From positions 2,542,001-2,606,000 of the forward strand of contig NZ_CP076128.1 of NCBI RefSeq assembly GCF_018736065.1: a DNA stretch of 64,000 nucleotides. The letters run 5' to 3'. Source of the stretch: Flammeovirga kamogawensis (GTDB taxonomy: Bacteria; Bacteroidota; Bacteroidia; Cytophagales; Flammeovirgaceae). Shown one piece after another: positions 5,012 to 19,499 of the stretch; the stretch's first letter is position 1; each line of letters starts with the position of its first letter. A program made the translations under genes and the position numbers. The notes beneath the pieces were generated by a model. That model was given only the letters and a program-made list of their open reading frames with translations. It had not been told where the DNA came from and made no database searches.

Positions 5012-5413
5012 ATGAAAAATTTAAGAAATATCTTCGCAATCACATTAGTTACTTTATTTTCTTTAACAAGCGTATTCGCTTCGGGTACAGATAATGAAGA
5101 TAACGAAATCACTAAACTTCGTAATAGTGTAGAAAATGCTTCAGCTAATGATTGGACTGTATATGCTGATGCTGCTGAAAGATGTATTGAATTAAAAACT
5201 AACTTAAGTGAAGCTTATGTTTGGTTAGATACAGCTTTAGAAATTGCACCAAATGCAAGAAATTACGAATTGAAAGGTGATTACCTAGCCCTTAACGGTG
5301 CTAACGATATGGCAATGGAAGCTTACCGTCAATCTATCCTTTTAGGAATGAACGACAGTGATTATGATATTCCTGCTGTACAAAAAAAATTATTGAAACT
5401 GTATAATAAGTAA
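5012..5413 (+). CDS. Small exported TPR-like protein, paralogue 1
   Basis: A 133-residue protein with a Sec signal peptide (residues 1-23, hydrophobic core followed by FASG). The mature ~110 residues look helical. The segment ENASANDWTVYADAAERC and the following IELKTNLSEAYVW resemble one degenerate TPR, and LKGDYLALNGANDMAMEAYR resembles a second. I recognise no named family and give no function; a periplasmic or secreted helical-repeat scaffold is the most that can be inferred. It is the first of two tandem paralogues; the second is 132 residues at 6136-6534 and shares about half its residues, including ADAA.RCIELK.NLSEAYVW. It is a single-gene unit with its own long leader and terminator. 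Confidence 0.8.
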   Translation: MKNLRNIFAITLVTLFSLTSVFASGTDNEDNEITKLRNSVENASANDWTVYADAAERCIELKTNLSEAYVWLDTALEIAPNARNYELKGDYLALNGANDMAMEAYRQSILLGMNDSDYDIPAVQKKLLKLYNK

Positions 5414-5651: not shown

Positions 5652-6135
5652 AAACCGAACACTTTTTATTAAAAACCATTCAAATAGCATAAAAAATTAC
5701 AATTACAATAATTAAAAAGATGAAAAATAAATATTTTTACACTTTTAATAAAAATACACCTTATTTTTTATCAAATTATTAAAAACAGAAGTGAGATATA
5801 AATAATCACACAACGAAATGTATAAAAACCAGTACTAGCAAGACCAATAAAACATATACAAAATTACGCAAAACAATAAAAAAACAGTACAATATTCTTA
5901 ATAAGTGTAAATAAAAAGAGTAAATCAGAATAATATTTGGATAGATTCTATAAAACATGACCGATTATGAACAATATGTTCAATTATGTAACCCAAACAG
6001 CGTTACGATTACACTTAAAACAGTAAAAAACCACAACAAATAATTGATAATCAGCTACTTATATACTATTGGCATTTAATTAGTAATAGTAGAAGTATAA
6101 AACATTTAGATAAAAAAACACAAACATATATAATC
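5652..6135 (+). promoter_or_regulatory. Long AT-rich leader of small exported protein 2, with conserved blocks
   Basis: A non-coding region paralogous to 4554-5011. It carries the same 16-mer AAACCGAACACTTTTT (5652-5667), an AAAGATGAAAAA block, the dyad block at 5959-5990, and the TGGCATTTAATTAGTA block at 6070-6085 about 66 bp before the start. Spacing of the blocks to the ATG is conserved to within about 30 bp. The sequence between blocks has diverged, so the blocks are probably under selection. Confidence 0.55.
5968..5982. promoter_or_regulatory. Candidate operator dyad, copy 2
   Basis: A perfect inverted repeat, TGAACA-ATA-TGTTCA, in the conserved leader block, 168 bp before the start codon of the 6136 gene. 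Confidence 0.45.
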
Positions 6136-6534
6136 ATGAAATCTTTAAAACAATTCTTCGTAATCGCACTTTTAGCTATCATCACTGCTGCACCTTCTTT
6201 TGCTGGTATTCATGACAATGAGGATAACGAAATTAATAAATTACGTGCTACTGTAGAAAATGCTAGTGCAACAGATTGGGCTATCTATGCTGACGCTGCT
6301 GATAGATGTATTGAATTAAAGAAAAATTTAAGTGAAGCTTATGTATGGATTGAGAAATCAATCGCAATCAATACTAACTCAGAAAACCTTGAAGTAAAAG
6401 GTGATTACCTTGCTTTAAATGGTGCTAAAGACATGGCTATTGATACTTACAACAAAGCAATCTTATCTGGAATGCAGGAAGGAAAAGATATCACTAAGCT
6501 TCAAAAGAAAGTATTGAAAATGTCTCGTCGTTAA
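6136..6534 (+). CDS. Small exported TPR-like protein, paralogue 2
   Basis: A 132-residue paralogue of the 5012 gene. A signal peptide covers residues 1-23 (ending PSFAG) and is followed by the shared core: DNEDNEI.KLR..VENASA, ADAADRCIELKKNLSEAYVW and KGDYLALNGAKDMAI. The mature part is predicted helical with degenerate TPR character. There are no catalytic motifs, cysteine pairs or metal ligands beyond the single conserved Cys of the RCIEL motif. The duplication included the upstream regulatory region, so the two proteins are probably made under related but not identical conditions. Function unknown. Confidence 0.8.
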   Translation: MKSLKQFFVIALLAIITAAPSFAGIHDNEDNEINKLRATVENASATDWAIYADAADRCIELKKNLSEAYVWIEKSIAINTNSENLEVKGDYLALNGAKDMAIDTYNKAILSGMQEGKDITKLQKKVLKMSRR

Positions 6535-6562
6535 TCGATAGACATACTAACCATAAATACAC

Positions 6563-6600
6563 AAAAAAGACCTTGATCATTTAAATGATCAAGGTCTTTT
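6563..6600. terminator. Bidirectional terminator between small exported protein 2 and trpA
   Basis: A long perfect hairpin, AAAAAGACCTTGATCATT and its complement around a central TTTAAA, has A and T tracts on either side. It can terminate both the plus-strand gene ending at 6534 and the minus-strand trpA ending at 6623. Confidence 0.92.
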
Positions 6601-6622
6601 TATTTATATAAACTTTTATTCC

Positions 6623-7399
6623 TTACTCCCCTCTAACAGCACTAACAAAACCCTTTATATCTTTTGGTAAATCTGTAGACTGCCCAATCAGTTTTACAAA
6701 AGCAGAACCAATAATAGCTCCATTAGAATAAGAAGAGGCTTCTTTAAAAGATTTATTATCTGAAATACCAAAACCAATTAATCTTGGGTTCTTCAATTTC
6801 ATAGCTTCAATACGTTTAAAGTAGTCTACTTGCTCAGAAGAAATTCCTGTTTTGGCACCTGTTACACTTGCAGAAGATACCATGTAGATAAACCCTTCTG
6901 TATTATCATCAATTTCTTTAATACGCTCATCAGAAGTTTGAGGGGAAATCAAGAATGTATTTCTAATGCCATGTGCGTTAAACATTTCTTTTAAGTTCAT
7001 TTGATATTCAATCATAGGAAGATCTGGAACAATAATTCCATCAATCCCTACGCGCTGAGCATCTTTACAGAACTTTTCTAAACCATATTGCATTATTGGG
7101 TTAAAATATCCCATAACAACAACTGGTACATCTACCTCATTTCTAAACCCTTCTAATTGCTCAAACAACTTTTGCATTGTCATTCCATTCTCCAATGCTT
7201 GCTCATTACTTTGTTGGATAGTCGGACCATCTGCAACAGGATCCGAGAAAGGTATGCCAATTTCTATTAAATCTGCACCACTATCTTGTAGACTTTTTAA
7301 GATTGTTCTTGTATCGTCTAATTTTGGATAGCCTGCTGTAAAATAAATATTTAATACCTCTTCTGGCTTACGCTGAAATAATTCGTCTATTCTATGCAT
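6623..7399 (-). CDS. trpA: Tryptophan synthase alpha subunit
   Basis: A 258-residue TIM-barrel enzyme that cleaves indole-3-glycerol phosphate to indole and glyceraldehyde 3-phosphate, the indole being channelled to TrpB. The catalytic residues are present: E46 in LIEIGIPFSDP and D57 in PVADGPT. The loop and phosphate-binding segments (MVSSASVTGAK, GFGIS, GAIIGSAFV) are in order, and the length is normal. No other trp gene lies within the window on either side, so trpA is separated here from trpB at least by the neighbouring genes. It is read toward the small exported protein gene and shares the terminator at 6563-6600. Confidence 0.96.
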   Translation of the reverse strand: MHRIDELFQRKPEEVLNIYFTAGYPKLDDTRTILKSLQDSGADLIEIGIPFSDPVADGPTIQQSNEQALENGMTMQKLFEQLEGFRNEVDVPVVVMGYFNPIMQYGLEKFCKDAQRVGIDGIIVPDLPMIEYQMNLKEMFNAHGIRNTFLISPQTSDERIKEIDDNTEGFIYMVSSASVTGAKTGISSEQVDYFKRIEAMKLKNPRLIGFGISDNKSFKEASSYSNGAIIGSAFVKLIGQSTDLPKDIKGFVSAVRGE

Positions 7400-7550
7400 A
7401 ATTTTGTTTTTTGTTTGTTAACTCCGAAAGTTACACATTCAAATTGAAAGCAAAAACTCATATCTTTTTAATAACTTGCAACGTTTAAAGTTTTAAGGCC
7501 AAAATAGGCTTGTTAAACTGATATATACTTTCTAACAAAAAGCATAGAAA

Positions 7551-8330
7551 ATGATAAATTTCTGGAAATACCAAGGTGCAGGTAACGATTTTATTATGAT
7601 CGATGACCGTAACAATACTTTTAATATTAACGATTTTGAAAAAGTTGCTTTACTATGCCACAGACGTTTTGGTATTGGAGCTGATGGCTTAATTCTTATT
7701 CGCTTAAAAGAAGGCTACGATTTTGAAATGGTTTACTTTAATGCTGATGGACATTTAGGAAGTATGTGTGGTAATGGAGGCAGATGTGCTGTTAGGTTTG
7801 CCCATACCTTAGGTTTATTTGAGAATAAGACATCGTTCTGGGCTGCTGATGGAGCCCACGAGGCAACCTTAGATGATAAACAACTGGTACATTTATTAAT
7901 GAACCCTCCTGGTGACATAGAAATTAATAATGATCATTACTTTATGGATACAGGTTCTCCTCATTACGTTCGCTTTGAAAATGACCTTATAAATTTTGAT
8001 TGCGTTGCTGAAGGTAAAGCTATTAGACATAATGAAAGATTTAATGAGGAAGGTACAAATGTAAACTTTGCTCAAGTAACAGGTAAGCAATCTTTAGATG
8101 TAAGAACTTTTGAGAGAGGTGTTGAAGATGAAACGTATGCTTGTGGTACAGGTGTAACAGCTTGTGCTATTGCAGCAAATATTGAACATGATATGCAAAG
8201 TCCTATTCAAGTTAAAGTTCTTGGTGGACAATTAGCCGTTGGTTTTACTAAGGTTAGTGATAAAAAATATACAAATATCATATTAACTGGACCTGCAACT
8301 CCTGTTTTTAAAGCAGAAATTGAAGGATAA
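7551..8330 (+). CDS. dapF: Diaminopimelate epimerase
   Basis: A 259-residue enzyme that interconverts LL- and meso-diaminopimelate for lysine and peptidoglycan synthesis. The two catalytic cysteines are present: C73 in SMCGNGGRC and C198 in YACGTGVTA. The N-terminal QGAGNDFI signature is intact and the length is slightly short for the family but complete. An IS3-family element has inserted 12 bp after its stop codon. The probable native terminator now lies beyond the element at 9736-9772, so dapF transcripts would run antisense into the transposase genes unless stopped elsewhere. Confidence 0.96.
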   Translation: MINFWKYQGAGNDFIMIDDRNNTFNINDFEKVALLCHRRFGIGADGLILIRLKEGYDFEMVYFNADGHLGSMCGNGGRCAVRFAHTLGLFENKTSFWAADGAHEATLDDKQLVHLLMNPPGDIEINNDHYFMDTGSPHYVRFENDLINFDCVAEGKAIRHNERFNEEGTNVNFAQVTGKQSLDVRTFERGVEDETYACGTGVTACAIAANIEHDMQSPIQVKVLGGQLAVGFTKVSDKKYTNIILTGPATPVFKAEIEG

Positions 8331-8342
8331 TTATATGTATTT

Positions 8343-8367
8343 TGTCTAGTCCGTCCATAGCGTTACA
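8343..8367 (+). repeat. IS3-family terminal inverted repeat (orfB-side end)
   Basis: Begins TGTCTAGTCC and ends TAGCGTTACA. It pairs with 9700-9724 with mismatches concentrated in the middle. Confidence 0.85.
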
Positions 8368-8378
8368 GATTTAGACTA

Positions 8379-9236
8379 TTATATATTGATAGCATCGGGT
8401 GTAGACTCGGTGCTATTTTTACTTTTATAAGTTCTCATTTTTATTTCACTTTGCTGATGCATCTCAACAGGTGTCTTCATATAATTACTCCAATGAGGCC
8501 TTTCATTATTGTAAATATATACAGATTCTCTAATAAATTTATTCATTAAATCGAGATCATTAATTTTTATTCCTAAAATAAATTCTTGCTTAAGAATTCC
8601 GTTTATTCTTTCTGCTACCGCATTTTGATAAGGATCGTAAGATTCCGTCATCGAGCACAATACTTTATTTTCATGAAGATGTCGTTGATACTCGTGACTA
8701 CAATATTGTAATCCTCTATCTGAATGGTGTATCATTGGTAAATCAACATAGTTTCTATTTTTCAGTGCTTCTTTTAATGCTGCAATAGCTCCATTTGCAT
8801 TCAAACTATCTGATACGTTTAACCCCATTATTTTCTTAGAATAAGCATCTGTTACCAAGGAGAGATACATTGGGTTACTTCGCTCACCTATGTAAGTTAT
8901 ATCAGAAACTAATACTTGTTCAGGTCTATTTATTTCCAAATGCTCAATAAGATTTTTATGCTTTTTAAACCTGTGATGAGAATTTGTAGTGACATGATAT
9001 TGTTTTTTAGGCTTGATATCGAGTCGATTAGCCCTCATGATATCAAAAAGCTTATCTCTACCTACATTTAGTAATTGCAATTCAGGAAGAAGTAATTGAT
9101 ATAATTTCCTTGTCCCTATTTTAGTTTGCTTCAAGCGAATTCTTTTCACTAAGTCTACTACTTTAGATGCAATACTATTATTCTTTTTTACTTTCCTTTT
9201 CGAACGATAATAAATTTGTCGATTTAACCCAAGCAA
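8379..9236 (-). CDS. IS3-family transposase OrfB (DDE integrase domain)
   Basis: A 285-residue open frame with the retroviral-integrase-type catalytic core. The DDE residues are visible in VLVSDITYIG, IHHSDRGLQY and NAVAERINGILKQE, followed by the HWSNY and TP.E motifs of IS3 elements. The TTG at 9236 is only the first possible start. The frame is open further upstream (EEKIGVKPTCELLG) and joins orfA by -1 slippage at the A6G heptamer, so the true product is probably an OrfAB fusion covering 8379-9685. It ends 12 bp before the inverted repeat. Confidence 0.93.
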   Translation of the reverse strand: MLGLNRQIYYRSKRKVKKNNSIASKVVDLVKRIRLKQTKIGTRKLYQLLLPELQLLNVGRDKLFDIMRANRLDIKPKKQYHVTTNSHHRFKKHKNLIEHLEINRPEQVLVSDITYIGERSNPMYLSLVTDAYSKKIMGLNVSDSLNANGAIAALKEALKNRNYVDLPMIHHSDRGLQYCSHEYQRHLHENKVLCSMTESYDPYQNAVAERINGILKQEFILGIKINDLDLMNKFIRESVYIYNNERPHWSNYMKTPVEMHQQSEIKMRTYKSKNSTESTPDAINI

Positions 9237-9256
9237 TTCACAAGTCGGTTTGACTC

Positions 9257-9685
9257 CTATTTTTTCTTCTTTTTTGAATTGGTCAACCGCTTGGGTAAAG
9301 ACTTTTTTCTAATAGGAATATTAAACTCATCCTCAGCAATATCGATCATCATATCAAAGAAAATTGCTTTTTTATCTGTTACGTAGAGTTGTTTTTCTAA
9401 AGAAGCTTTTTGTTTCTCTAATAATAGAACCTTTTGTTCTAGCTCCAATAATTTTTGTTCTGGTGTCTTTCCCATTTTTAAATCAGATTTATTATCCCAA
9501 TCTAAATTACCATACTTTCTTATCCAAGTACGGATGGTACCATGACCTTGTATTCCATATTTAAGTCTTGCTGCCGTTATACCTATTTCCCCTCGTTCCA
9601 CTTCATCTACAACTTGTAATTTAAAAGAGTAGCTGTAATCTTTTTGTGTACGCTTAGTGTACTGATATTCTTGATCTTCATTCAT
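9257..9685 (-). CDS. IS3-family transposase OrfA (HTH domain)
   Basis: A 142-residue DNA-binding subunit. The N-terminal helix-turn-helix of IS3 OrfA is recognisable (SFKLQVVDEVERGEIGITAA then GTIRTWIRKYG). It is followed by a leucine-zipper-like heptad helix (residues ~80-110, LLELEQKVLLLEKQK) that mediates multimerisation. It ends in a lysine-rich tail encoded by the slippery A-rich stretch. OrfA alone usually acts as a regulator, and the fused OrfAB is the active transposase. Confidence 0.92.
   Translation of the reverse strand: MNEDQEYQYTKRTQKDYSYSFKLQVVDEVERGEIGITAARLKYGIQGHGTIRTWIRKYGNLDWDNKSDLKMGKTPEQKLLELEQKVLLLEKQKASLEKQLYVTDKKAIFFDMMIDIAEDEFNIPIRKKSLPKRLTNSKKKKK
9269..9275 (-). promoter_or_regulatory. 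Programmed -1 frameshift heptamer (A AAA AAG)
   Basis: In the orfA frame the codons read tcA AAA AAG, the canonical slippery heptamer of IS3-family elements. A -1 slip moves ribosomes into the orfB frame, giving EEKIGVKPTC and then the integrase domain, before orfA's TAG is reached. Confidence 0.75.
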
Positions 9686-9699
9686 AATGTTACGTTTTG

Positions 9700-9724
9700 T
9701 GTAACACTAATTCAGGACGAGACA
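9700..9724 (-). repeat. IS3-family terminal inverted repeat (orfA-side end)
   Basis: On the minus strand it begins TGTCTCGTCC and ends TAGTGTTACA. It lies 14 bp upstream of the orfA start and matches the end of the mini-element at 16950-16973. Confidence 0.85.
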
Positions 9725-9735
9725 TTTGACAGTAG

Positions 9736-9772
9736 AAAGGCATTGTTCTTAATAGGACAATGCCTTTTTTTT
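9736..9772 (+). terminator. Probable native dapF terminator, displaced by the IS
   Basis: An 11-bp stem AAAGGCATTGT / ACAATGCCTTT is followed by eight T. There is no plus-strand gene between the IS end and this hairpin. Removing the element puts it about 25 bp after the dapF stop. Confidence 0.85.
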
Positions 9773-10110
9773 ATAAAGTGTCTCACCCTGAGTTAATACT
9801 TACATTCAGTATTCAACATTAGGTTGATAGATATTGTCATTTGTTATCAGAGATAAAGTTTGTGTAGTAAGTACCTTAATAGTCAGATAGAACAGAATCA
9901 TCGTTATATCAAAAAAGAGTAAAACCTATGTTAGAGTTTTAAAACTTTGATTCAGCAGAGCATACAATTTTAAGAATAGAAACGATAAGAATGATCCAAC
10001 TTTCTAACAGAAATATCATACCTAATTTTAAAGCTCTCAAAACCTTAGCAACTTAGCGAAAATATCAAAATTGAAGATGAAAAATGATCCTTAAAACCAG
10101 GGTAACAAAG
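9773..10110. other. Gene-free stretch downstream of the CHAT operon
   Basis: About 340 bp with no supportable ORF. It begins with an IS-end-like sequence at 9779-9804 (TGTCTC.CCCTGA.TTA...TTACA) that resembles the right inverted repeat of the neighbouring IS3 element, with no recognisable transposase sequence after it. No hairpin followed by a T tract was recognised on the minus strand for the operon ending at 10111. Confidence 0.5.
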
Positions 10111-10653
10111 TCAATTTTTCATTATTGAGTAGTAAATTCTATCTAAAACCTCACAAAATGATTTCTTAAAATAAAGGATATATAAATCAATTTTGAAAAA
10201 TAAAGAAATACGGCTATTATATTGATGATCTTGATTTTCTTCAACCTTTCTTAAAAGAGGTATTACTTTTGAATATTTTTCTAATCCAATATTAGCTTCA
10301 ATAAGTAACCAATCTTTATGATCAGAATCAGGTTCTTTTTCTAAAAGAGATATAATCTTATCATATTTTTTATTATTAAGTGCTAAATATGATTTTTCTA
10401 GTATATTTTTAGTTTCATTCATACTACCTCTTGTTGAGTAGGAGTAACTAGTAGAATTTATTAATTTTTCATTACTCAGTTGAAATGAATAAAGAAAGAG
10501 ACTTCCTAATAATAAAAAAGAAGCTGCAATAGAGCCGAATTTTGATAACCCATCATATTTCTTTTCTCTTTGTTTCATATTCATGATTATTCCATCTAAC
10601 TCTCTTTTTCTATGAGTTATTTGAATTCTTTTTTCTATTTTTTGAATATCCAT
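10111..10653 (-). CDS. Small single-pass membrane protein of the CHAT/sigma operon
   Basis: A 180-residue protein with a basic, helical N-terminal segment (~1-40, cytoplasmic by the positive-inside rule), one transmembrane helix (~41-60, IAASFLLLGSLFLY) and an extracytoplasmic part. That part has TPR-like helical pairs (LEKSYLALNNKKYDKIISLL and LIEANIGLEKYSKVIPLLRK). I recognise no named family. It is the third gene of an operon after the CHAT protein and the ECF sigma factor, 72 bp after the sigma gene. Its topology, a short cytoplasmic N terminus and an outer sensor domain, is that of an anti-sigma factor, but it has no zinc-binding HxxxCxxC motif, so an anti-sigma role is only inference. 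Confidence 0.72.
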   Translation of the reverse strand: MDIQKIEKRIQITHRKRELDGIIMNMKQREKKYDGLSKFGSIAASFLLLGSLFLYSFQLSNEKLINSTSYSYSTRGSMNETKNILEKSYLALNNKKYDKIISLLEKEPDSDHKDWLLIEANIGLEKYSKVIPLLRKVEENQDHQYNSRISLFFKIDLYILYFKKSFCEVLDRIYYSIMKN

Positions 10654-10725
10654 GTTGTAGTTTAAATTTTATTATTACTCATTAGATACCTAAAATTATT
10701 TTTGTAATCAGTGATCTTAAAAAAA

Positions 10726-11367
10726 TTATAAGCACGAAGATATAATTGATAGAAGTTCTTCCTTATCATCCGTTCTGTTTTCAAAACCTTGCTTTAAATA
10801 TTTAAGACATCGGCTTTTCTTATTTCTAATAGCTTGTTCTGATGAGTATTTATTGACAAAGCGATGTTGAATTTCTGAATAACTTAATTTATCAAAATAG
10901 TAATTCTTTAAAATTTTTTGACAGTCTTCTCCAATCCTGGAAAGTAAACTTTCAAAATACCTTTTACTTTCTAAGTCATCTTCATTTCCTAAAGGAACTT
11001 CTGATAATAAAGAAGAATGATCAGATACGTCATGTAATTGTGAGTTATATTCAGTTGTTCTGAGCTTTTTATTTTTTTCTATTGTTTTTAACCACATATT
11101 CTTAGAAACAGTGACTATGTAGGTTGATATATGTGAGGTCCCTTGAAATTGACCTTCATCAATACTCCATAATACTTTAGCAAAAGCATCTTGAAAAATA
11201 TCCTCTGCATCTTCCAAAGATCCGTTCATTTTTAAAATGATGTGTTTGACAGTAGGAAAATACTTTTTGTAGATGTATTCAACAGTATACTCATAATTGT
11301 TTCTATTTTTTAAGTTAGAAACAATTTTTTCTGAAGTGAGATTATTTTTAAAAATTGATAATAGCAT
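10726..11367 (-). CDS. ECF-type RNA polymerase sigma factor
   Basis: A 213-residue sigma-70-family protein. Region 2 is clear (YIYKKYFPTVKHIILKMNG, then LEDAEDIFQDAFAKVLWSI) and so is region 2.4 (STYIVTVSKNMWLKTIEKNK). Region 4 (~145-190: IGEDCQKILKNYYFDKLSYS followed by EIQHRF and RNKKSRCLKYLKQG) is the -35-recognition HTH in somewhat divergent form. It lies 17 bp after the CHAT gene and upstream of the small membrane protein, so it is translated from the CHAT transcript. It probably controls a small regulon tied to whatever the CHAT protein senses; that link is inferred from the operon. Confidence 0.87.
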   Translation of the reverse strand: MLLSIFKNNLTSEKIVSNLKNRNNYEYTVEYIYKKYFPTVKHIILKMNGSLEDAEDIFQDAFAKVLWSIDEGQFQGTSHISTYIVTVSKNMWLKTIEKNKKLRTTEYNSQLHDVSDHSSLLSEVPLGNEDDLESKRYFESLLSRIGEDCQKILKNYYFDKLSYSEIQHRFVNKYSSEQAIRNKKSRCLKYLKQGFENRTDDKEELLSIISSCL

Positions 11368-11384
11368 ATTTAGAATAGAAATAA

Positions 11385-13892
11385 TTATTGGGATCCTATC
11401 ATTTTAAGGAAACTTGTTTTTAGCGACGGTTTTACAATAGCTGAAGAGTTTCCATTTAGAACCAAGCTTCCCCAAAACATTGGATTATTATATAATATCT
11501 TATTTTCATAAATGAAGTCTTTTTTTGCTTTCTGCAATGCTATATCTTTCTCCCATCCCTCTTTTAAGTAGTTATAAAAACTTGTTATTACACTTAAAGA
11601 CACCTGATCGTTAACATTCCATTTACCTGCTATAATACTGGGAATTTTTGCATAAGCAAAAGCTCTTTGCAAACTCATATTTCCTTCTCCTTCCAGAAAT
11701 GCACCATCGGCAGATTTACAGCTACTCAGTATAACTAGCTTCACTGAGGTTAATTTCAAATTTTCAATTTCTGAAAAAGAAATTACGTTTAAGCTTTCTA
11801 AAGGGTAAAGTTCAATACAAGACCTTTGAGGAATATTATTAATTTTTGTATGTGTCGCAAAATGTAGAATATCAAAGGATTCATTCATTAACATTCTATG
11901 TATATTTTCATAGTTTGCATTCTCATTTATCAATGTCTCATTTCCAATATTGAGAGCTTCCTGCTTAGAATAAGGGAGATTAATATTTGCAAATGGAGCA
12001 GCACTAAAAACGTTAAGAGATGAATTAAGGTCACTATTGAAAGTATCACTCACTAAATCATGATGCAAAGAAAAAGAATAACTTACAGCATGATTTTCTA
12101 CCAAATATTTATTGTTAAATTTTAAAATCTCAAAAGGTAGTTTATTCAAAAGACCACTTTGCGAAATGACAAGTCTTTGATTATTAGTAGTTTTAATCCA
12201 CTCTGGTAAGAGTACTTTACTTATTTCATTTAAACTTGTCAAAAACTGATTAGGTAAAAAATAGTTACTTTCTTGAATATTTTTAAGAATAGTATTCAGG
12301 TTTTCATTTAGCTTATCAGTTCTTGGAATCACTTTAAGATAAAAGTTGGCTTCGTTGTAACTGATACAGTAGATTTTATTGTTATTAAGATGATAAGAAA
12401 TAAACGATTTATCTAAATAATGCGTTTGAAAAAATGGAATAATTTTTTCTGATGACAAAAGAGATGAATTAGATACTCGGTCTTTCTTCAATAAAAGTAA
12501 TTCTTCATTATCCAAATACTGTTTAAAGGTAATATTTTTGATTCCTAATGACCTCCTATTTAAAATCGATGATTTTAAATTCTCTATAATTTCTATAGCA
12601 TCCAATAAGTACTTCTGATCTTTTGTACTTTCATATTGTGCTGTAAAAAAGTCTACCCATTCATCCTGAACATATCTTAACTCTTGAATATGAAATAATT
12701 GATCTTCATCTTGGTGCTGATGAGTAATAAATTTTTTAAAAAGCTGATAGCTCTTCCTGTAGTACTTTTCTTTCTGCACCATAGACTTTGCATGTTTACC
12801 ATAGTAATAATTTTGGATCATGAGTTCATATTTCAAACCATCACTCGTATCACCTTGTATTTTTATACTTTCATCTATGATAGCTTGTGCAGCATCTAAA
12901 AACTGTTTTTTATTACTTTCTGAGTAATTACACAGGGTTCTATAAATATTCGCCCCTAATATAGAAATTCTTTGATTGGGTAATTTTTTTGCTTTATGAT
13001 AATATTCTAATGCTTCATTTAAGTGAAAATTCCGTTTCTTTTTATCAGAAATATCATAATAACAATTTGAAATATTTAAATGTGCTCTCGCTTTAAAAAA
13101 GTAGTGATCAAAAATTTCATCTTGACTGTAAAAAAAATCCCCTGAATCATTAAAATATGCTTCATTGTCAATCAAAAATTTTTGATAAAGGGTAATAGCT
13201 TTTGTATAAAGCTTGTTTTTTTGTAGAAAGGTACCATAATGATAATGGTGTATTCCCTTGTTTTTTTTGGGGGATGATATTATTGAATTATAAGTAGAAT
13301 CAACATCTTCTTTATCTCCCAATAAACCTTTCAAATGTAGATTATTTGAAGAAAAAGTATAACTTATTTTTTCATTAGAAAGAATCACATTATTCAATAT
13401 CTCTTTTGATAATGTATATTCATGTTTTATAGTAAAAATATGTTGCAGGTTATTTAAAATAAAGTGAGCACTTTTGATGGATTTGGTTTTCTTTAAATTA
13501 AATAATATTCCCTGTTTATAATAATACTCAGCTGAATCTAACTTTCCCAATTGATAATAATACTTCCCAAGAAGTCCATAAGCATTCAATTGATGAGACC
13601 TAAAAGGAATATCCTTTTCAAGTAGTTTAAACGATTTTCTTAAAAAATGAATTCCCTTTTTAAAATCTAACTTTTCTTTACCATAAATATGACCAATCGC
13701 ATTATAAGCAAAAACTATAAAATCTTTATTTTCTGTTGTTACTGTCAGCTCTAAAAATGTCTCAATAGATTTGTCAAATTCATACCTATAAAACTCCTTA
13801 ATACCTCTTTGTTTAAGCTCAATATCATTTGCATATCCATTTAATGATGAAAATATTGTAACAAATAATAGAGACCTTAGTAAAATGTTCAT
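11385..13892 (-). CDS. TPR-CHAT protein (caspase-like peptidase fold), exported
   Basis: An 835-residue protein with a signal peptide (residues 1-21, ending NGYA), about ten TPR-like helical hairpins (~25-450) and a C-terminal CHAT domain (~550-820). The caspase-type catalytic dyad is present: His in ILHFATHT (~682) and Cys in ILSSCKSADG (~725), with the typical AFAYAKIPSIIAGKWNVND strand after it. CHAT proteins are clan CD peptidase relatives found with TPR repeats in bacteria. They are proposed to be proteases triggered by signals sensed through the repeats. It leads an operon with an ECF sigma factor and a single-pass membrane protein. A perfect 8-3-8 palindrome lies 36 bp upstream of its start. 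The substrate is unknown. Confidence 0.88.
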   Translation of the reverse strand: MNILLRSLLFVTIFSSLNGYANDIELKQRGIKEFYRYEFDKSIETFLELTVTTENKDFIVFAYNAIGHIYGKEKLDFKKGIHFLRKSFKLLEKDIPFRSHQLNAYGLLGKYYYQLGKLDSAEYYYKQGILFNLKKTKSIKSAHFILNNLQHIFTIKHEYTLSKEILNNVILSNEKISYTFSSNNLHLKGLLGDKEDVDSTYNSIISSPKKNKGIHHYHYGTFLQKNKLYTKAITLYQKFLIDNEAYFNDSGDFFYSQDEIFDHYFFKARAHLNISNCYYDISDKKKRNFHLNEALEYYHKAKKLPNQRISILGANIYRTLCNYSESNKKQFLDAAQAIIDESIKIQGDTSDGLKYELMIQNYYYGKHAKSMVQKEKYYRKSYQLFKKFITHQHQDEDQLFHIQELRYVQDEWVDFFTAQYESTKDQKYLLDAIEIIENLKSSILNRRSLGIKNITFKQYLDNEELLLLKKDRVSNSSLLSSEKIIPFFQTHYLDKSFISYHLNNNKIYCISYNEANFYLKVIPRTDKLNENLNTILKNIQESNYFLPNQFLTSLNEISKVLLPEWIKTTNNQRLVISQSGLLNKLPFEILKFNNKYLVENHAVSYSFSLHHDLVSDTFNSDLNSSLNVFSAAPFANINLPYSKQEALNIGNETLINENANYENIHRMLMNESFDILHFATHTKINNIPQRSCIELYPLESLNVISFSEIENLKLTSVKLVILSSCKSADGAFLEGEGNMSLQRAFAYAKIPSIIAGKWNVNDQVSLSVITSFYNYLKEGWEKDIALQKAKKDFIYENKILYNNPMFWGSLVLNGNSSAIVKPSLKTSFLKMIGSQ

Positions 13893-13927
13893 TGATTATT
13901 GTAAGTAATACTAAATTTTCATATGAA

Positions 13928-13946
13928 CACAATTTATAAAATTGTG
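13928..13946. promoter_or_regulatory. Palindromic candidate operator upstream of the CHAT operon
   Basis: A perfect inverted repeat, CACAATTT-ATA-AAATTGTG, 36 bp upstream of the CHAT start codon. No T tract follows it, so it is not a terminator. Its symmetry and position suit a dimeric regulator, but an AT-rich chance palindrome cannot be excluded. Confidence 0.4.
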
Positions 13947-14093
13947 AAGTATTTAATAACAATAACAAACAACCGAAGACTTAACAAAACCTAACATTGA
14001 TTACGCAACCGATTGTTATGTATATTTACTAATACTTTTCGTTTTTTAGGTTGTTACAAAGAATTTTAACGTTCTAAGAATATTATTTTTAAA

Positions 14094-14124
14094 ATAAAAA
14101 AAACACCCTTAATATAAAGGTGCC
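14094..14124 (-). terminator. Probable terminator of the 14222 receptor gene
   Basis: Read on the minus strand, CACCTTT and AAGGGTG form an imperfect 7-bp stem followed by eight T. It lies about 100 bp after the receptor's stop codon. Confidence 0.6.
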
Positions 14125-14221
14125 TTTAATAAAAATATAGTATAATTAGATACCCAAATACTCAAAATTTACCTACTTTCTTTTGAACATTATAAATATT
14201 TATTTTCAATCACTCATTTTC

Positions 14222-16540
14222 TTAATTCAATCCACCTTTTGTGTGAAGTTTTCTATTCTTTCTACCTTTAAACTGTCCTCCAAAATCATAATTAAAGGAT
14301 ATTTTATATATCGGCACTTCACCTAAAGTATACGTTCTGTCTTCAAATCCATCACCATATACGGTAGATCCAAATCCACTATTTACAAAATCATCTACTT
14401 TTAAAGTTAAGGTACCTCTGTTTTTTAGAATACGTTTCTGAATAGACATTCCAAGAGCATAATTAGTATCTGAAATCACTTGGGCATTATACTGTATACT
14501 TGCATACCTTCCTGATAAATTAAATACAAAACCTTTTGGAAGGGTAATACTTGAATTCAACTTACCTGAAAAGTTAAAAGGGCTCTTTTCACCTGGGATA
14601 GTATAAGTTTCATCTTGAACATCTAAATAAAATACGTTGATACCTCCATCTATTTTCCACCATTTTACAATCTGATAATTACTTGATAAAGAAAGGCCAC
14701 CTGTTTTAGTTACTCCTAAATTCTCATAAGAATTAACAGTTATATTTCTTTCATTATCAAAATTGGCAATGCTAGTAATTACATCTGTACTATGTCTGAA
14801 ATACACACTAGTAGTAAAGCTGAACTTATTTTTATAAAAGCTATGGTCCATACTAATAGAATTTGTGTAAGAAGGTTGTAATTCAGGGTTACCGACTAAT
14901 ATACTGACAGGGTTTATAGCAATTTCAATCGGCAATAACTGTGATATTTTCGGTCTTTGAATTCTTCTACTGTAGCTTAAGCCTAAATTATTATGATCAT
15001 TAAGTTGTTGACGTAAATGAAGACTTGGGAATAAACTTTTATAATCAATGGTATAATTTTCTTTTCCATCCTCAATAATGTCTGCCGATATATTTACCAT
15101 TTCTGCTCTTAAACCTGCCTTCATTGAAAACTTACCCAGTTTCAAAGAGTAAGATGAATAAGCTGAGTTAATAGACTCTCTATAATCATAATTATACCCG
15201 TTGTTTCCTATTGGATTTTTGATATCCATCAATAGGTTGGCCCCAATTGTTTGACTATGAATACCTACATCAAAAGCTGATTTATCATTTATAGCTTGTG
15301 AATAATCCACCTTATAGGCTTGAAAGGTAAAATTACCACCTGTTAGATTTGAATAATCATCGTTAACGTTAGACACTAGATCAAATTCTCCAGTATTCAA
15401 TGTGATATCTGTTTCTAAACTACCTTTTTTAAATTGCTTTTGATGATTTAAGCTGAAGGTATAACTATCCTCTTTACTACTAAGGTATGATCTATCCAAT
15501 ACGTCATATTCAGATCTTTCTCTGGTCAATACATTTTGAGTTGTCTCGTACTTGTTTTGTTCAAAATAAAAAGTAATCACATTGGTTGAGTCTAAGAAGT
15601 AGTCCGTTCCTACTTTAATTTTATGGTACTCACCACGGTTTACCTTGTCTATATCCTGACGTAACACACTATTATTTTCATAATTTGTTCTGTCTAATGT
15701 ACCATCAAACTCATTTCTATTCGCTCCATAATTACCACTAGCAAAGAAGTTAAACTTTTTCACCCTGTAATTTAGACCTACATAGTTGTTATTCTTCTGA
15801 CGAGAACCAACTTCTGTATACAAACCTACATTGAAACCTTCCATGGTATTTTTCTTAGTGATAATATTTATGATACCAGATAAACCTTCAGGATCATATT
15901 TAGCGGAAGGATTTGTAATCACTTCAATTTTATCAATCGAGCTTGCCGGAAGACTTTGTAATACTTGAGTGATATCCATTTGAGACATTTTTCCGTCAAT
16001 CAGGATTTTTACATTCGATTCACCTCTTAGGCTAATTTTCCCTTGAGAATCTACACTTATCTCAGGGATTTTATTTAAAAATTCAGAAACAGAATTTCCA
16101 CTTGCTTGTTCAGGAGTTACATTTACAATATTCTTATCAATAGTTCGCTCAATCATCATTTTATCCCCTTGAATCACAACTTCATCAAGTTGCTTTGTAC
16201 TTACAGCAAGCTTAACTGTTCCAATATTCAAAGTAGATTTATCAACAACAATCACTTTTTTATACATCTCATAACCAATAAACTGTATTCTCAATTCATA
16301 AGTCCCATAATAAACATCTTTAATAGTAAAGTTTCCTTTATCACCTGATAAAACACCTCCTATTATTTTCCCTTGGTTATCCAATACGGATACTGTTGCA
16401 TAACCAACAGCTTCACTAGTTTGAGCATTTATGATGCCCCCTATAATTTGTCCTTTTTTTTCTGCAGCATGTGAGTCAAAAGATTGCCCGATGAAGAAAA
16501 AATTAGAGATCAGAATTAATGATAATTTTATTAAATTCAT
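14222..16540 (-). CDS. Outer-membrane beta-barrel receptor with CarboxypepD-like N-terminal domain
   Basis: A 772-residue protein. It has a signal peptide (1-25, ending SHAA), a carboxypeptidase-regulatory-like beta-sandwich (~30-115), a plug domain (~118-230; VSEFLNKIPEISVD, LRGESNVKILIDGK, SIDKIEVITNPSAKYDPEGL) and a C-terminal barrel (~240-772). It belongs to the OMP_b-brl_3 group of TonB-dependent-receptor-like proteins of Bacteroidota. No TonB box is clear between the beta-sandwich and the plug, so energised transport is not certain. The ligand is unknown; there is no SusD partner. The interrupted ORF at 16645-17406 lies 104 bp upstream on the same strand and may once have been cotranscribed with it. 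Confidence 0.87.
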   Translation of the reverse strand: MNLIKLSLILISNFFFIGQSFDSHAAEKKGQIIGGIINAQTSEAVGYATVSVLDNQGKIIGGVLSGDKGNFTIKDVYYGTYELRIQFIGYEMYKKVIVVDKSTLNIGTVKLAVSTKQLDEVVIQGDKMMIERTIDKNIVNVTPEQASGNSVSEFLNKIPEISVDSQGKISLRGESNVKILIDGKMSQMDITQVLQSLPASSIDKIEVITNPSAKYDPEGLSGIINIITKKNTMEGFNVGLYTEVGSRQKNNNYVGLNYRVKKFNFFASGNYGANRNEFDGTLDRTNYENNSVLRQDIDKVNRGEYHKIKVGTDYFLDSTNVITFYFEQNKYETTQNVLTRERSEYDVLDRSYLSSKEDSYTFSLNHQKQFKKGSLETDITLNTGEFDLVSNVNDDYSNLTGGNFTFQAYKVDYSQAINDKSAFDVGIHSQTIGANLLMDIKNPIGNNGYNYDYRESINSAYSSYSLKLGKFSMKAGLRAEMVNISADIIEDGKENYTIDYKSLFPSLHLRQQLNDHNNLGLSYSRRIQRPKISQLLPIEIAINPVSILVGNPELQPSYTNSISMDHSFYKNKFSFTTSVYFRHSTDVITSIANFDNERNITVNSYENLGVTKTGGLSLSSNYQIVKWWKIDGGINVFYLDVQDETYTIPGEKSPFNFSGKLNSSITLPKGFVFNLSGRYASIQYNAQVISDTNYALGMSIQKRILKNRGTLTLKVDDFVNSGFGSTVYGDGFEDRTYTLGEVPIYKISFNYDFGGQFKGRKNRKLHTKGGLN

Positions 16541-16644
16541 TTTCTTACATTATATACGTTTACAGTTTATTCAATAGCTTTTGTCTGCTATATTATTTAG
16601 ATCTGTTTTTTTAAAATTGTAATCAGTCCTTTTTAAAAAATTCA

Positions 16645-17406
16645 TTAGGCTTTTGAAGAAGAGAAAATATTGATAAAATGATAAGAATATAAATTTTCTA
16701 AATTCACCATCTCACTTATTATATATTGAGGATAATAAATAAGCTTATTAAAAGTGATGAATTTTGGCACCAAGGCTAATTTTTCTATTTGTATATTCCC
16801 CAACTTAAACTGAATGTGCTTAGTGTTATAAAATATGATAAATGGATTAACTTTAAATTTTGCGTTAAGAATGTGATCAGTATCAGATAAAATAAATTGG
16901 TCAGATTTTATTATTTCTTCATTTTTAGAAATTCCTGTTTTTGAAACTCTGTCTCATCTGAATTAGTGTTACACAAAACGTAACAATTATGAGTGATCAT
17001 CAAGAATATCAGTACACTAAGCACGCACAAAAAGATTACAGCTACTCTTTTAAATTACAAGTTGTAGACGAAGTGGAGCGAGGAGAAATAAGTATAACAG
17101 CTGCAAGACTTAGATATGATGATCGATTTTGCAGAGGATGAGTTTAATATTCCTATTAGAAAAAAGTCTTTATCCAAGCAGTTGACCAATTCAAAAAAGA
17201 AGAAAAAAATAGGCATCAAACTGACTTATGAATTATTTGGGATAGATCAACAAAATTATTATCGTTAGAATAAGAAAGTAAAAATAGCACCAAATCTACA
17301 CCTGATACTATCAATATATAGTAATCTAAATCTGTACCACTATAGATGGATTATACATAATAACATCATTCTCAAGAAAATCATTTTTATAAATTACAGT
17401 TTTCAT
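16645..17406 (-). pseudogene. 117-codon ORF split by a mini-IS insertion
   Basis: Removing the 408-bp mini-element (16950-17357) joins an upstream ATG segment (17358-17406, MKTVIYKNDFLENDVI) to a downstream open frame (16645-16949, beginning RVSKTGISKNEEIIKSD and ending IFSSSKA) in the same frame. This gives 117 codons plus a stop with no internal stop. With the element in place translation ends after 25 residues at a TAG inside it. I recognise no family in the reconstructed product, which is rich in Ile, Asn and Phe with no clear signal peptide. The exact in-frame join supports a real former gene, although the ORF is short for an AT-rich genome. Confidence 0.6.
16950..17357 (+). mobile_element. 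Internally deleted IS3-family copy (mini-IS)
   Basis: A 408-bp element with both ends of the IS at 8343-9724 but two internal deletions. It keeps the orfA start (MSDHQEYQYT...EISITAARLRY). It then jumps to the orfA 3' end (MMIDFAEDEFNIPIRKK) and the orfB beginning (TYELFGIDQQNYYR), and then to the last ~80 bp of the element. The coding sequence is broken by stops. The ends are TGTCTCATCTG at 16950 and GGATTATACA at 17357. No target duplication is visible (CTC against TAA). It could be moved only in trans. It interrupts the ORF described at 16645-17406. Confidence 0.88.
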
Positions 17407-17531
17407 ATTAAATAAATTTGCAGATCAATAAACAAACTCCTAACTTCTATAATCAAGAGGTTTTTAAATGAACATCTTGAAAAAATCAATTTCACTGACC
17501 TTAGCAAACCATTGAAACGCAAATTACAAAC

Positions 17532-19499
17532 ATGAAGCGTCTTCTTTTATTTATATCAATCGCAAGCATTATTGCTAGTTGTTCTTCTCCTTTAAGTGTT
17601 GCAGAAAAACATTTCGAGACAGGAGAATATGAACCTGCAATAAAAAAATATGAGGCTATTGCTGAAAACAATAAATATGCAAAAGAGAAACCTGAAGCAT
17701 ATTATAAAATTGCAGAAGCATATCGCCTTTCAAATCGTATATCCGAAGCTTTACCTTATTACAAAAAGGCAAAAGATAATGGTTACGAAAATATGGATAT
17801 GTATTTCTATTATGCCTACGGCTTAGAATTACAAGGTGATTATGAGAAAGCTCGAAAACTCTTTAGCAGGTATGCTAAAGAAGGTAGCGATCGTCAATTA
17901 ATCAGAAGAGCCAAAGATGAAATCAAACAAATTGATTTAGTAGACAGCCTTTCAAAGGTTGTTGACCCATTTATTGATATATCCCTTTGTGAAGCTTTAA
18001 GTAGTAACAAATCAGATTATTCTCCGTCATTTTTTAATGGCGATCTAATCTTTACTTCTACTAGAGATTCTGAAGCTGTATATCAAGGAACTGGAGAAGG
18101 ATATGCCAACTTATACCGCTACACTTTTGATAAAGCTGATAGCTGTAATGGTCAGGTAACGTTTTTTGATAGTCTAATCAATAATCCTAATTTCCATGAA
18201 GCATCTGCTACTTTTAGCAGAGATGGTAAGTTTATGATTTTTGCACGTAGCAATACGGGGCATCATAAAGAAGATTATAAAGAAGTAGATTTGTATGAAT
18301 CTCGTTTTGAAGATGGAAAATGGACTGAACCTACTATTTTAAAATTTAGTAACCCTCAATCTTGGGATGCTTGCCCTGCCCTTTCTGTAAATGGTAAAAC
18401 ACTTTATTTTGCTTCTAACCGAAAAGGTGGTTACGGCGGTATAGATATTTATAGGTCGCAACGTAATGTAAATGGCACTTGGGGTAAACCTAGAAACATG
18501 GGGCCTAAAATTAACTCTAGAGGTAATGATATGTTCCCTTATGTTGCTGCAACTGGTAAAATGTATTTTGCTTCCGATGGGCACCCAGGTTTAGGAGGTT
18601 TAGATTTATTTGAAGCATCTCGAAAAAATAAAAAAATAAAAATCAAGAATATGGGTAAGCCGTTCAACTCGTCTGCAGATGATTTTGGCTTAGTATTCTT
18701 AGAAAAAAGATTTGGTGCATTTACTTCTTCAAGGCAAGTTGGTGATGATAAATTAAATCAAGATCATATTTATTTCTTTTCAGATAAAACACCAATTGAT
18801 AAACCAATAAATTATTTCTTAGCAGGTAACTCTATTGGTGTCAAAGATACTTCTGAAGTACCTCTTGCAGGTGTTGATGTTATGCTTTTAAAACCTGATG
18901 GTTCACTTGTAGAAAAGGTACTTTCTGATGATAAAGGAAGGTACAAGTTTAAAACACAATTGGTAATGGGTGATGATTATATCTTGATTGCCCAAAAGGA
19001 GAAATATTTCCAAGATTCTGTTTATTATACAACTGCTGATAAGGAGATTGACCAAGAAGATGTTAAAGACCGACCTGAAAAAATTGTTGATTGGGTATTA
19101 GAATCAGAGGTTGATCTTACAAAAGATTTCTATGATGAATTAATTGAAGAAGGTGAAATTACTTTAAACAATATCCTTTATGATTTTGACGATTATAGAA
19201 TCCGTATTGATGCTGCTAGGGAACTAGACAAACTAGTTACATTGTTAGAACAACACCCTAATATTAGTATTGAACTTGGTTCTCATACAGATGATAGAGG
19301 ATCTGAAAAATACAATATAAAGCTATCTCAAAAAAGAGCAGAATCTGCTGTAAATTATATTATTAGTAGAGGTATTGAAAAAGATAGAATTGAAGCAAAA
19401 GGTTATGGTGAATTACTTCCTGTAATTTTTAATGCAGAAACAGAAGAAGAACATCAAGTGAACCGTAGAACAACGGTAACTTTACTTGATGAAATATAA
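17532..19499 (+). CDS. porE: PorE-like type IX secretion lipoprotein (TPR-PD40-CRD-OmpA)
   Basis: A 655-residue lipoprotein: signal peptide with lipobox ending at C17 (IIASC), TPR repeats (~22-130), a PD40/WD40-like beta-propeller (~150-405, with SYSP-like and LYFASNRKGGYGG.DIY repeats), a carboxypeptidase-regulatory-like domain (~425-505) and a C-terminal OmpA peptidoglycan-binding domain (~540-655; ELGSHTDDRGS, LSQKRAESA, GYGE, NRRTTV). This domain order is that of PorE (PG1058) of Porphyromonas gingivalis, an outer-membrane-anchored T9SS component that binds peptidoglycan. The same order also occurs in paralogues, so the exact T9SS role is inferred. It is a single-gene unit closed by a strong terminator. 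Confidence 0.82.
   Translation: MKRLLLFISIASIIASCSSPLSVAEKHFETGEYEPAIKKYEAIAENNKYAKEKPEAYYKIAEAYRLSNRISEALPYYKKAKDNGYENMDMYFYYAYGLELQGDYEKARKLFSRYAKEGSDRQLIRRAKDEIKQIDLVDSLSKVVDPFIDISLCEALSSNKSDYSPSFFNGDLIFTSTRDSEAVYQGTGEGYANLYRYTFDKADSCNGQVTFFDSLINNPNFHEASATFSRDGKFMIFARSNTGHHKEDYKEVDLYESRFEDGKWTEPTILKFSNPQSWDACPALSVNGKTLYFASNRKGGYGGIDIYRSQRNVNGTWGKPRNMGPKINSRGNDMFPYVAATGKMYFASDGHPGLGGLDLFEASRKNKKIKIKNMGKPFNSSADDFGLVFLEKRFGAFTSSRQVGDDKLNQDHIYFFSDKTPIDKPINYFLAGNSIGVKDTSEVPLAGVDVMLLKPDGSLVEKVLSDDKGRYKFKTQLVMGDDYILIAQKEKYFQDSVYYTTADKEIDQEDVKDRPEKIVDWVLESEVDLTKDFYDELIEEGEITLNNILYDFDDYRIRIDAARELDKLVTLLEQHPNISIELGSHTDDRGSEKYNIKLSQKRAESAVNYIISRGIEKDRIEAKGYGELLPVIFNAETEEEHQVNRRTTVTLLDEI

What the first reader, a model, noticed from the sequence alone, without database searches (positions are those of the whole stretch)
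10111..13892. TPR-CHAT / ECF sigma / membrane-protein operon
Seen: a three-gene operon in which an exported TPR-CHAT protein with an intact His-Cys dyad precedes an ECF sigma factor (17 bp) and a single-pass membrane protein with TPR-like outer repeats (72 bp). Known: CHAT domains are caspase-like (clan CD) and TPR-CHAT proteins are thought to be signal-triggered proteases. Inference: the CHAT protein may cut the membrane protein, releasing the sigma factor, as in regulated intramembrane signalling but with a caspase-like first protease. Membrane topology (short basic cytoplasmic N terminus) suits an anti-sigma factor, yet it has no zinc anti-sigma motif. This is the best candidate in the window for a poorly described system.
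Basis: partly seen in the sequence, partly recalled or inferred. Interest (0 to 1): 0.7.

Follow-up and report, generated by a model that had tools for sequence, protein, structure and literature searches.

The report
Caspase-like protease paired with sigma factor
Across many Bacteroidota, a caspase-like protease that appears to be exported out of the cytoplasm sits next to a gene-switching sigma factor and its likely membrane-bound inhibitor, suggesting that these bacteria turn on genes by cutting that inhibitor from outside, a step that this work could not test.

Summary
The trio is real: exported TPR-CHAT protein (835 aa), ECF sigma factor (213 aa), 1-TM protein (MEM, 180 aa), one strand, gaps 17 and 72 bp. 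It is not strain-specific. 12 of 14 full-length CHAT homologues in the family (window counted) have sigma and MEM beside them, half in a rearranged, convergent order. A sigma-only search of named genomes gave 80 loci, 52 with a CHAT gene in the fetched flanks. Among deduplicated CHATs within 6 kb of an ECF gene the His-Cys dyad is intact in 63 of 63, and 41 of 63 have a C-terminal membrane anchor against 12 of 59 others. MEM has a conserved Arg in its periplasmic linker (window R75). MEM, small lipoproteins and, in Chitinophagaceae-type loci, the sigma operon and the gene leading the CHAT operon share ECF-type promoter motifs. Best reading: MEM is a membrane anti-sigma factor that the periplasmic CHAT protease cuts, releasing sigma, which feeds back on MEM. 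It works like DegS-RseA and Craspase Csx29-Csx30-CASP-sigma. Nine literature searches found no account of it in Bacteroidota.

The parts
11385..13892 (-). TPR-CHAT protein, 835 aa; probable signal peptide at about 1-21 (by eye); TPR match 62-128; CHAT domain 554-815; dyad H681/C725
10726..11367 (-). ECF sigma factor, 213 aa
10111..10653 (-). MEM: single-pass membrane protein, 180 aa; N-in by charge; periplasmic linker with conserved R75; TPR-like C-terminal part; candidate anti-sigma factor
10682..10711 (-). promoter-like site CTGATTACA-N17-CTAA, 29 bp before the MEM start
16597..16626 (-). second promoter-like site CTGATTACA-N17-CTAA, 57 bp before the outer-membrane protein gene
14222..16540 (-). 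outer-membrane beta-barrel protein (PF14905, CarboxypepD_reg, Plug), 772 aa; candidate regulon member in this genome only

Best explanation
The trio is a module that carries a signal from the envelope to transcription. SHOWN by sequence comparison: recurrent linkage of an ECF sigma factor, a single-pass membrane protein that is N-in by charge, and a TPR-CHAT protein with intact dyad; and shared ECF-type promoter motifs upstream of MEM, of small lipoproteins and (in Chitinophagaceae-type loci) of the sigma operon and the gene leading the CHAT operon. INFERRED: MEM is the anti-sigma factor and its cytoplasmic N-terminus holds sigma at the inner membrane. An unknown envelope signal, perhaps sensed by the TPR part of the CHAT protein or by the lipoprotein, switches on the periplasmic CHAT protease. 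It cuts MEM in the linker between membrane and TPR part, most likely at the conserved Arg (window R75, SYSYSTR-GSM). Intramembrane and cytoplasmic proteases then finish MEM off, as in RseA processing, and free sigma transcribes MEM (negative feedback), the lipoprotein and, in this genome, the outer-membrane protein 14222-16540. My split: one module with MEM as anti-sigma about 0.85; CHAT as the activating protease acting on MEM about 0.6; cleavage at the Arg about 0.4.
For: Linkage: 12 of 14 full-length CHAT homologues (window counted) have sigma+MEM adjacent, 6 same-strand and 6 convergent, so the link survives rearrangement. From the sigma side, 52 of 80 named loci have CHAT in the fetched flanks; of the 28 without, 18 have under 5 kb on one side. 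From the CHAT side, 18 of 60 CHAT loci, one per genome, have an ECF gene in about 13 kb against 1 of 20 control stretches, Fisher p 0.03; in 16 of the 18 the gene after an ECF has a TM by my threshold, and in a 17th (L224) it matches the MEM profile. Catalysis: H and C in 63 of 63. Topology: C-terminal TM in 41 of 63 linked against 12 of 59 unlinked CHATs, p 6e-7; tail charge positive in 40 of the 41; 70 of 75 MEM rows have more K/R before than after the TM. Anti-sigma: relatives of MEM have an about 85-residue cytoplasmic part; sub-threshold zf-HC2 in 2 of 7 scanned, RseA_N in 1 of 7. Cut site: R75 invariant in 10 of 10; R followed by G/D/S/N in 54 of 62 CHAT-linked linkers (shuffles 27.3, sd 3.5) against 13 of 24 FecR linkers (shuffles 11.9). 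Promoters.
Against: No direct evidence of cleavage or binding, and no model of either. The R[GDSN] motif was chosen after seeing the alignment; core MEM rows share it by descent; in 4 of the 54 it lies only outside residues 10-37 of the linker; MEM relatives without CHAT in the fetched flanks have it too (L140, L168); 8 of 62 linked rows lack it, some of these not MEM-like. The separase residue for P1 Arg (D2151) is a Lys in a Craspase CHAT (PMC9729208, passages), and I could not place it in the window protein. In this genome the other 9 of 10 CHAT genes have no ECF or MEM match in the fetched stretches; two full-length CHAT homologues (L057, L060) lack the pair, and one sigma (L102) is solitary. 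42 of 60 sampled CHAT loci have no ECF nearby. The window CHAT lacks the C-terminal anchor. Variant promoter sites (L052, L053, L055, L056, L054) and L058 score 10 of 13, which 202 of 2400 random stretches reach or exceed. In Chitinophagaceae-type loci the CHAT operon itself looks sigma-driven, which fits an effector as well as an activator.
Confidence: 0.6

Rival explanations
1. The sigma/anti-sigma pair controls the CHAT protein as an output: the CHAT protease is an effector of the response (for instance acting on envelope proteins or in cell death) and does not cut MEM.
For: In 27 Chitinophagaceae-type loci the gene leading the CHAT operon has the GGTTAC-N17-T[TG]AC motif in 7 of 22 (GGTTAC alone 14 of 22); caspase-like proteases including CHAT have such roles with bacterial gasdermins (PMC9612521, PMC9729208, passages).
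Against: In Flammeovirga the motif faces MEM and the lipoprotein, while towards CHAT it lies in the opposite orientation, 14-16 bp from the start; MEM has a conserved Arg in an otherwise variable linker, and that linker should lie in the same compartment as CHAT.
Confidence: 0.2
2. MEM is cut by a housekeeping site-1 protease (DegS/Prc-like); the CHAT protein only senses the signal or binds MEM through its TPR part.
For: Known anti-sigma cascades use such proteases (PMC10028731 and PMC8999054, passages); the TPR part is the larger half of the protein.
Against: Dyad intact in 63 of 63 deduplicated sigma-linked CHATs, which a pure binding role would not need; but it is equally intact in the unlinked ones (His 59 of 59, Cys 58 of 59 with one gap), so this speaks for protease activity, not for MEM as substrate.
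Confidence: 0.12
3. Coincidental or loosely selfish clustering without a shared pathway.
For: The three parts also occur apart; the block in this genome lies between an IS3-type element and pieces of a decayed copy.
Against: Linkage in several families and after rearrangement; promoter motif with a 17-bp gap in 35 of 35 matches although 13-18 was allowed.
Confidence: 0.05

Closest known systems
Craspase module Csx29 (TPR-CHAT) - Csx30 - CASP-sigma of type III-E CRISPR (PMC10028731 and PMC9729208, passages read)
   Same: A TPR-CHAT protease encoded with an ECF sigma factor and an inhibitor; in Craspase the inhibitor binds sigma and is cut by the protease, with the H615/C658 pair needed
   Different: Here no Cas7-11-sized gene among the neighbouring ORFs listed, the CHAT protein looks exported, and the candidate inhibitor is a short single-pass membrane protein; cleavage not shown
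DegS-RseA-RpoE regulated proteolysis (as described in PMC10028731, passages; otherwise recalled)
   Same: Membrane anti-sigma factor next to its sigma factor and, as inferred here, a periplasmic protease that starts its destruction
   Different: First protease would be caspase-like (clan CD) instead of DegS; the window MEM gives no RseA_N match
ECF54, model member from Geodermatophilus (PMC8999054, passages)
   Same: ECF sigma reported with CHAT, subtilase or carboxypeptidase genes nearby, proteolytic control proposed
   Different: ECF54 is listed among groups without an anti-sigma factor; here a membrane anti-sigma candidate recurs and the hosts are Bacteroidota
FecI-FecR (recalled)
   Same: ECF sigma followed by a 1-TM regulator; a TonB-receptor-like barrel gene lies next door in the window
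   Different: MEM does not match PF04773; TPR-like periplasmic part instead of the FecR domain

Membership tests
ECF sigma factor | sigma-70 region 2 and ECF superfamily model over curated cut-off | tested here: met
   PF04542 38 bits (cut-off 24), TIGR02937 74.7 bits (cut-off 42.9)
ECF sigma factor | region 4 as a Pfam match of its own | tested here: inconclusive
   no region 4 family at E <= 0.1; TIGR02937 covers residues 29-193, nearly the whole model
CHAT peptidase | PF12770 over cut-off with His-Cys dyad | tested here: met
   147 bits (cut-off 24); H681/C725
CHAT peptidase | proteolytic activity | not testable with these tools
   needs a bench assay
Craspase (Csx29/Csx30/CASP-sigma) | association with Cas7-11/gRAMP | tested here: not met
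   none among the 12 ORFs of at least 80 aa listed for window 6000-18500 (8 of the 12 scanned with Pfam); the rest of the genome was not searched for it
Craspase (Csx29/Csx30/CASP-sigma) | inhibitor cut by the CHAT protease, freeing sigma | not testable with these tools
   inferred only
Zinc-binding anti-sigma (ZAS) | HxxxCxxC motif (recalled) | tested here: not met
   the window MEM has a single Cys, C167; 2 of 7 relatives match zf-HC2, below cut-off
RseA | RseA_N domain | tested here: not met
   no match for window MEM at E <= 0.1; 1 of 7 relatives at E 0.048, below cut-off
FecR | PF04773 | tested here: not met
   no match for window MEM at E <= 0.1
Membrane anti-sigma factor (general) | single TM, N-in, gene next to its ECF sigma | tested here: met
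   hydropathy and charge rules of my script
Membrane anti-sigma factor (general) | binding to the sigma factor | not testable with these tools
ECF54 | phylogenetic group of Casas-Pastor 2021 | not testable with these tools
   classification paper not held; no group models at hand

The most novel reading that the evidence does not exclude
A signalling system spread over Bacteroidota and, as far as nine searches show, not described there: a periplasmic, often membrane-anchored caspase/separase-like protease cuts an anti-sigma factor after a conserved Arg (often Arg-Gly), with lipoprotein partners in one autoregulated circuit. It would be the housekeeping counterpart, possibly the source, of the CHAT-inhibitor-sigma module that type III-E CRISPR uses.
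Probability: 0.35. Interest if true: 0.85.

Novelty: new variant of a known kind. Interest (0 to 1): 0.66.

Why it matters
CHAT genes are common (found in 188 of 395 sampled phylum genomes), while the substrates I met in the passages read are few (Csx30, bacterial gasdermins). This gives, for one large group, a candidate substrate, a candidate cut site, a location and a promoter that can be tested with one reporter strain. If right, caspase-like proteolysis controls transcription across the bacterial envelope, and the Craspase protease-inhibitor-sigma arrangement would be one case of a wider bacterial habit.

Tried and rejected
Chance clustering: rejected by recurrence and rearranged order. 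MEM as a FecR, RseA or zinc anti-sigma: not met. The argument that D762 is the separase-type pocket for a P1 Arg was dropped: D762 is near-invariant in linked and unlinked CHATs alike, and the published pocket residue falls elsewhere as far as I can count. The outer-membrane gene as a conserved fourth member: not upheld; its relatives in other genomes of the genus are not beside exact motif hits. Motif hits genome-wide: of 26 in 9 genomes (reversed control 2), 8 lie at trio loci, at the solitary sigma or before the window outer-membrane gene; the other 18 were not sorted out, and several are near-identical stretches repeated among genomes with no gene start close downstream. A MEM-only search of 395 phylum genomes gave mostly weak matches (35 genomes) and was not used for counts. 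A whole-MEM alignment of the 75 CHAT-linked rows did not line up the linker, so I counted a motif per row. PDB searches with CHAT and MEM profiles returned mainly TPR proteins.

Rows dropped or kept before counts: the 75 MEM rows are the window's and genes after an ECF within 6 kb of a CHAT, with one TM by my threshold starting at residue 31-149; relatives whose TM missed the threshold (L104, L113, L114, L224 and others) are not in them, and some FecR-like or unrelated genes are. FecR controls: 30 loci, 1 without a spanning ORF, 4 without TM, 25 left, 24 after deduplication. L161 and L162 gave no sigma match with my profile and stay in the 80; L162 counts among the 52. L181 gave no CHAT gene by my ORF caller and stays in the 60. 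The 27 Chitinophagaceae-type loci were picked by me, and its motif was read off the same sequences, so its p value is not an independent test.
Full report
OBSERVATION. Pfam gives CHAT and TPR in the first, sigma-70 region 2 in the second and nothing in the third; NCBIfam places the second in the sigma-70/ECF superfamily. The genome is about 7 Mb in 4 contigs; the nearest named relatives are Flammeovirga.

CONSERVATION IN THE FAMILY. The genome has 10 CHAT genes. In the fetched surroundings of the other nine, my profiles find no ECF and no MEM gene. A search with the whole CHAT protein in 18 family genomes gave 13 further full-length homologues; 11 of the 13 have sigma and MEM homologues beside them, 5 in the window's same-strand order and 6 with the sigma-MEM pair convergent to CHAT. 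Counting the window, 12 trios lie in at least 9 of 18 genomes, among them 8 of the 9 of the genus; not every CHAT match of the other genomes was fetched. Seven more CHAT loci fetched for comparison (L061-L067) show no match to the window sigma. In the sigma tree the rows of this family's trios form one group with L102 (10 rows, 100/100); L102 is a Flammeovirga sigma with no CHAT or MEM match in its stretch.

CONSERVATION IN THE PHYLUM. Of the 28 without, 18 have under 5 kb on one side of the sigma gene. Anatomy seen in Chitinophagaceae and Sphingobacteriaceae examples: sigma, MEM of about 255 aa overlapping or abutting it, often a secreted lipoprotein, then a convergent CHAT gene, often led by another lipoprotein gene; in Bacteroidales examples the CHAT gene is divergent. 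Of three lipoproteins after MEM that I scanned, two have DUF4382. In a tree of 83 sigma rows, 73 labelled CHAT (within 6 kb), 32 rows mainly of Chitinophagaceae and Sphingobacteriaceae form one CHAT-only group (89/88; 31 of them 100/98). The label needs 5 changes against 9.6 in shuffles, none of 500 as low. The tree left out near-copies and unlinked rows with under 5 kb of flank, and the label also catches some ECF genes that merely lie near a CHAT. From the other side, 60 CHAT genes, one per genome, taken by hand from the score-ordered list, were fetched with about 6 kb on each side: 18 have an ECF gene, against 1 of 20 control stretches from 20 of the same genomes (p 0.03). This sample leans to high-scoring CHATs.

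CHAT PROTEIN. In deduplicated sets, 63 CHATs within 6 kb of an ECF gene and 59 others were compared. The catalytic His and Cys are present in all 63 linked (and His in 59, Cys in 58 of 59 others, one gap). A hydrophobic N-terminal stretch is seen in 51 of 63 linked and 46 of 59 others, against 1 of 116 sigma factors. A C-terminal TM is seen in 41 of 63 linked against 12 of 59 others (p 6e-7), followed by a positively charged tail in 40 of the 41: such proteins should be anchored in the inner membrane with CHAT outside. The window protein has no such anchor; those of L058-L060 do. These are hydropathy rules of my own script, not a trained predictor.

MEM. The window MEM and its family homologues are aligned; by my threshold they have one TM (the L050 protein falls just below it). 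Of 75 CHAT-linked rows, 70 have more K/R in the 15 residues before the TM than after. The window MEM has only about 38 residues inside; relatives have about 85, with an anti-sigma-like pattern (zf-HC2 below cut-off in 2 of 7 scanned, RseA_N below cut-off in 1 of 7). Alignments tie the short and long forms together through the helix before the membrane, the TM and the C-terminal TPR-like block. Between TM and TPR lies a variable linker with one conserved Arg: R75, invariant in 10 of 10 family rows. Over 62 deduplicated CHAT-linked linkers of 50 residues, 54 contain R followed by G, D, S or N (50 within residues 10-37); shuffled linkers give 27.3 (sd 3.5). FecR proteins of the same phylum give 13 of 24, shuffles 11.9 (Fisher p 0.003). 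The motif was picked after looking, and many rows are related by descent. Of the 8 without it, L167 has Met-Gly at the place. Bacterial gasdermins are cut by caspase-like proteases after Leu or Arg, and in the one mutated the Leu and the next Gly were needed (PMC9612521, passages). Csx30 is reported cut after L407 in one paper and between 427 and 429 in another (PMC9729208 and PMC10028731, passages); these may be different homologues. So an Arg-Gly site is plausible, not proven.

PROMOTERS. Upstream regions of the family trios share CTGATTACA-N17/18-CTAA. Before MEM it is exact in window, L050, L051 and L059 (there before a later start codon), 12 of 13 in L048, 11 in L049, and 10 in the other six; in five of those (L052, L053, L055, L056, L054) I read a variant GGTGACA..TCTAAT by eye. 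Random stretches of the same loci reach 12 or more in 9 of 2400 draws, true sites included, and 10 or more in 202. Small genes divergent from CHAT with a lipoprotein-like N-terminus are present in 9 of 13 CHAT loci examined, 6 with a lipobox by my pattern and 3 by eye, none in the window; the site lies before those of L048, L049, L051, L059 and, with one change, L058. With gap 17 exactly, this genome has three exact sites, two of them in this block: before MEM and before the outer-membrane gene 14222-16540; with 17 or 18 it has five. Genus-wide there are 26 hits of the 17/18 pattern and 2 of its reversed control; 8 of the 26 are at these loci. In 27 Chitinophagaceae-type loci another form appears: GGTTAC-N17-T[TG]AC upstream of sigma in 17 of 27, of the first gene after MEM in 11 of 20, of the gene leading the CHAT operon in 7 of 22, of CHAT itself in 0 of 27, and of all other genes in 8 of 322; a gap of 13-18 was allowed and all 35 matches in the first three groups have 17 (p 3e-23, but the motif was read off the same loci and the loci are related). 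This is what an ECF sigma factor that feeds back on its own module would leave.

MECHANISM AND RIVALS. The parts suit regulated proteolysis of a membrane anti-sigma factor by a caspase-like protease in the periplasm. Shown: linkage, dyad, topology by rule, motif. Inferred: binding, cleavage, signal. The main rival is that CHAT is an output of the circuit.

KNOWN SYSTEMS. The closest is Craspase, in which the TPR-CHAT protease Csx29 cuts Csx30, the inhibitor of an ECF sigma factor (PMC10028731, passages). The window trio works like it in outline but I do not file it as a member: no Cas7-11 among the neighbouring ORFs listed, exported protease, membrane inhibitor. ECF54 is reported with CHAT neighbours and no anti-sigma factor (PMC8999054, passages). 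ECF genes beside caspase-domain systems are also described in the TRADD-N paper (PMC8195603, passages), without this arrangement in the passages seen. Nine literature searches showed no account of a CHAT-ECF-membrane anti-sigma module in Bacteroidota; the library lacks most subscription papers and the ECF classification paper, so it may be noted there.

Noticed in passing
window 8379-9685 and 16950-17362: An IS3-type transposase pair lies downstream of MEM, and three pieces of a decayed copy (85-91% identical, opposite orientation) lie beyond the outer-membrane gene, so the block is flanked by IS sequence on both sides.
   Followed up: partly
L012 5430-16109: Three CHAT genes of about 1150-1210 aa in tandem elsewhere in the same genome, with no ECF match in the stretch.
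   Followed up: no
L013 7204-10694; L066 3798-7274: Another CHAT gene of about 895 aa followed by a response-regulator-like gene (by eye), seen also in a second genome of the genus.
   Followed up: no
L102 8983-9630: A solitary sigma factor of the same group with the promoter motif about 330 bp upstream but no CHAT or MEM match.
   Followed up: no
L051 1679-5914: Beside the lipoprotein of one trio lie a radical-SAM-like protein and a probable peptidase/ABC transporter, as in a peptide-maturation cluster (by eye, not family-scanned).
   Followed up: no
L103 10416-11312; L116 10880-11722: DUF4382 lipoproteins sit between the sigma-MEM pair and CHAT in two loci.
   Followed up: no
L054 4177-4830: Three near-identical tandem ORFs of 67 aa with signal-type N-termini upstream of one trio, and a 74-aa lipoprotein-like ORF at 5003-5227.
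   Followed up: no
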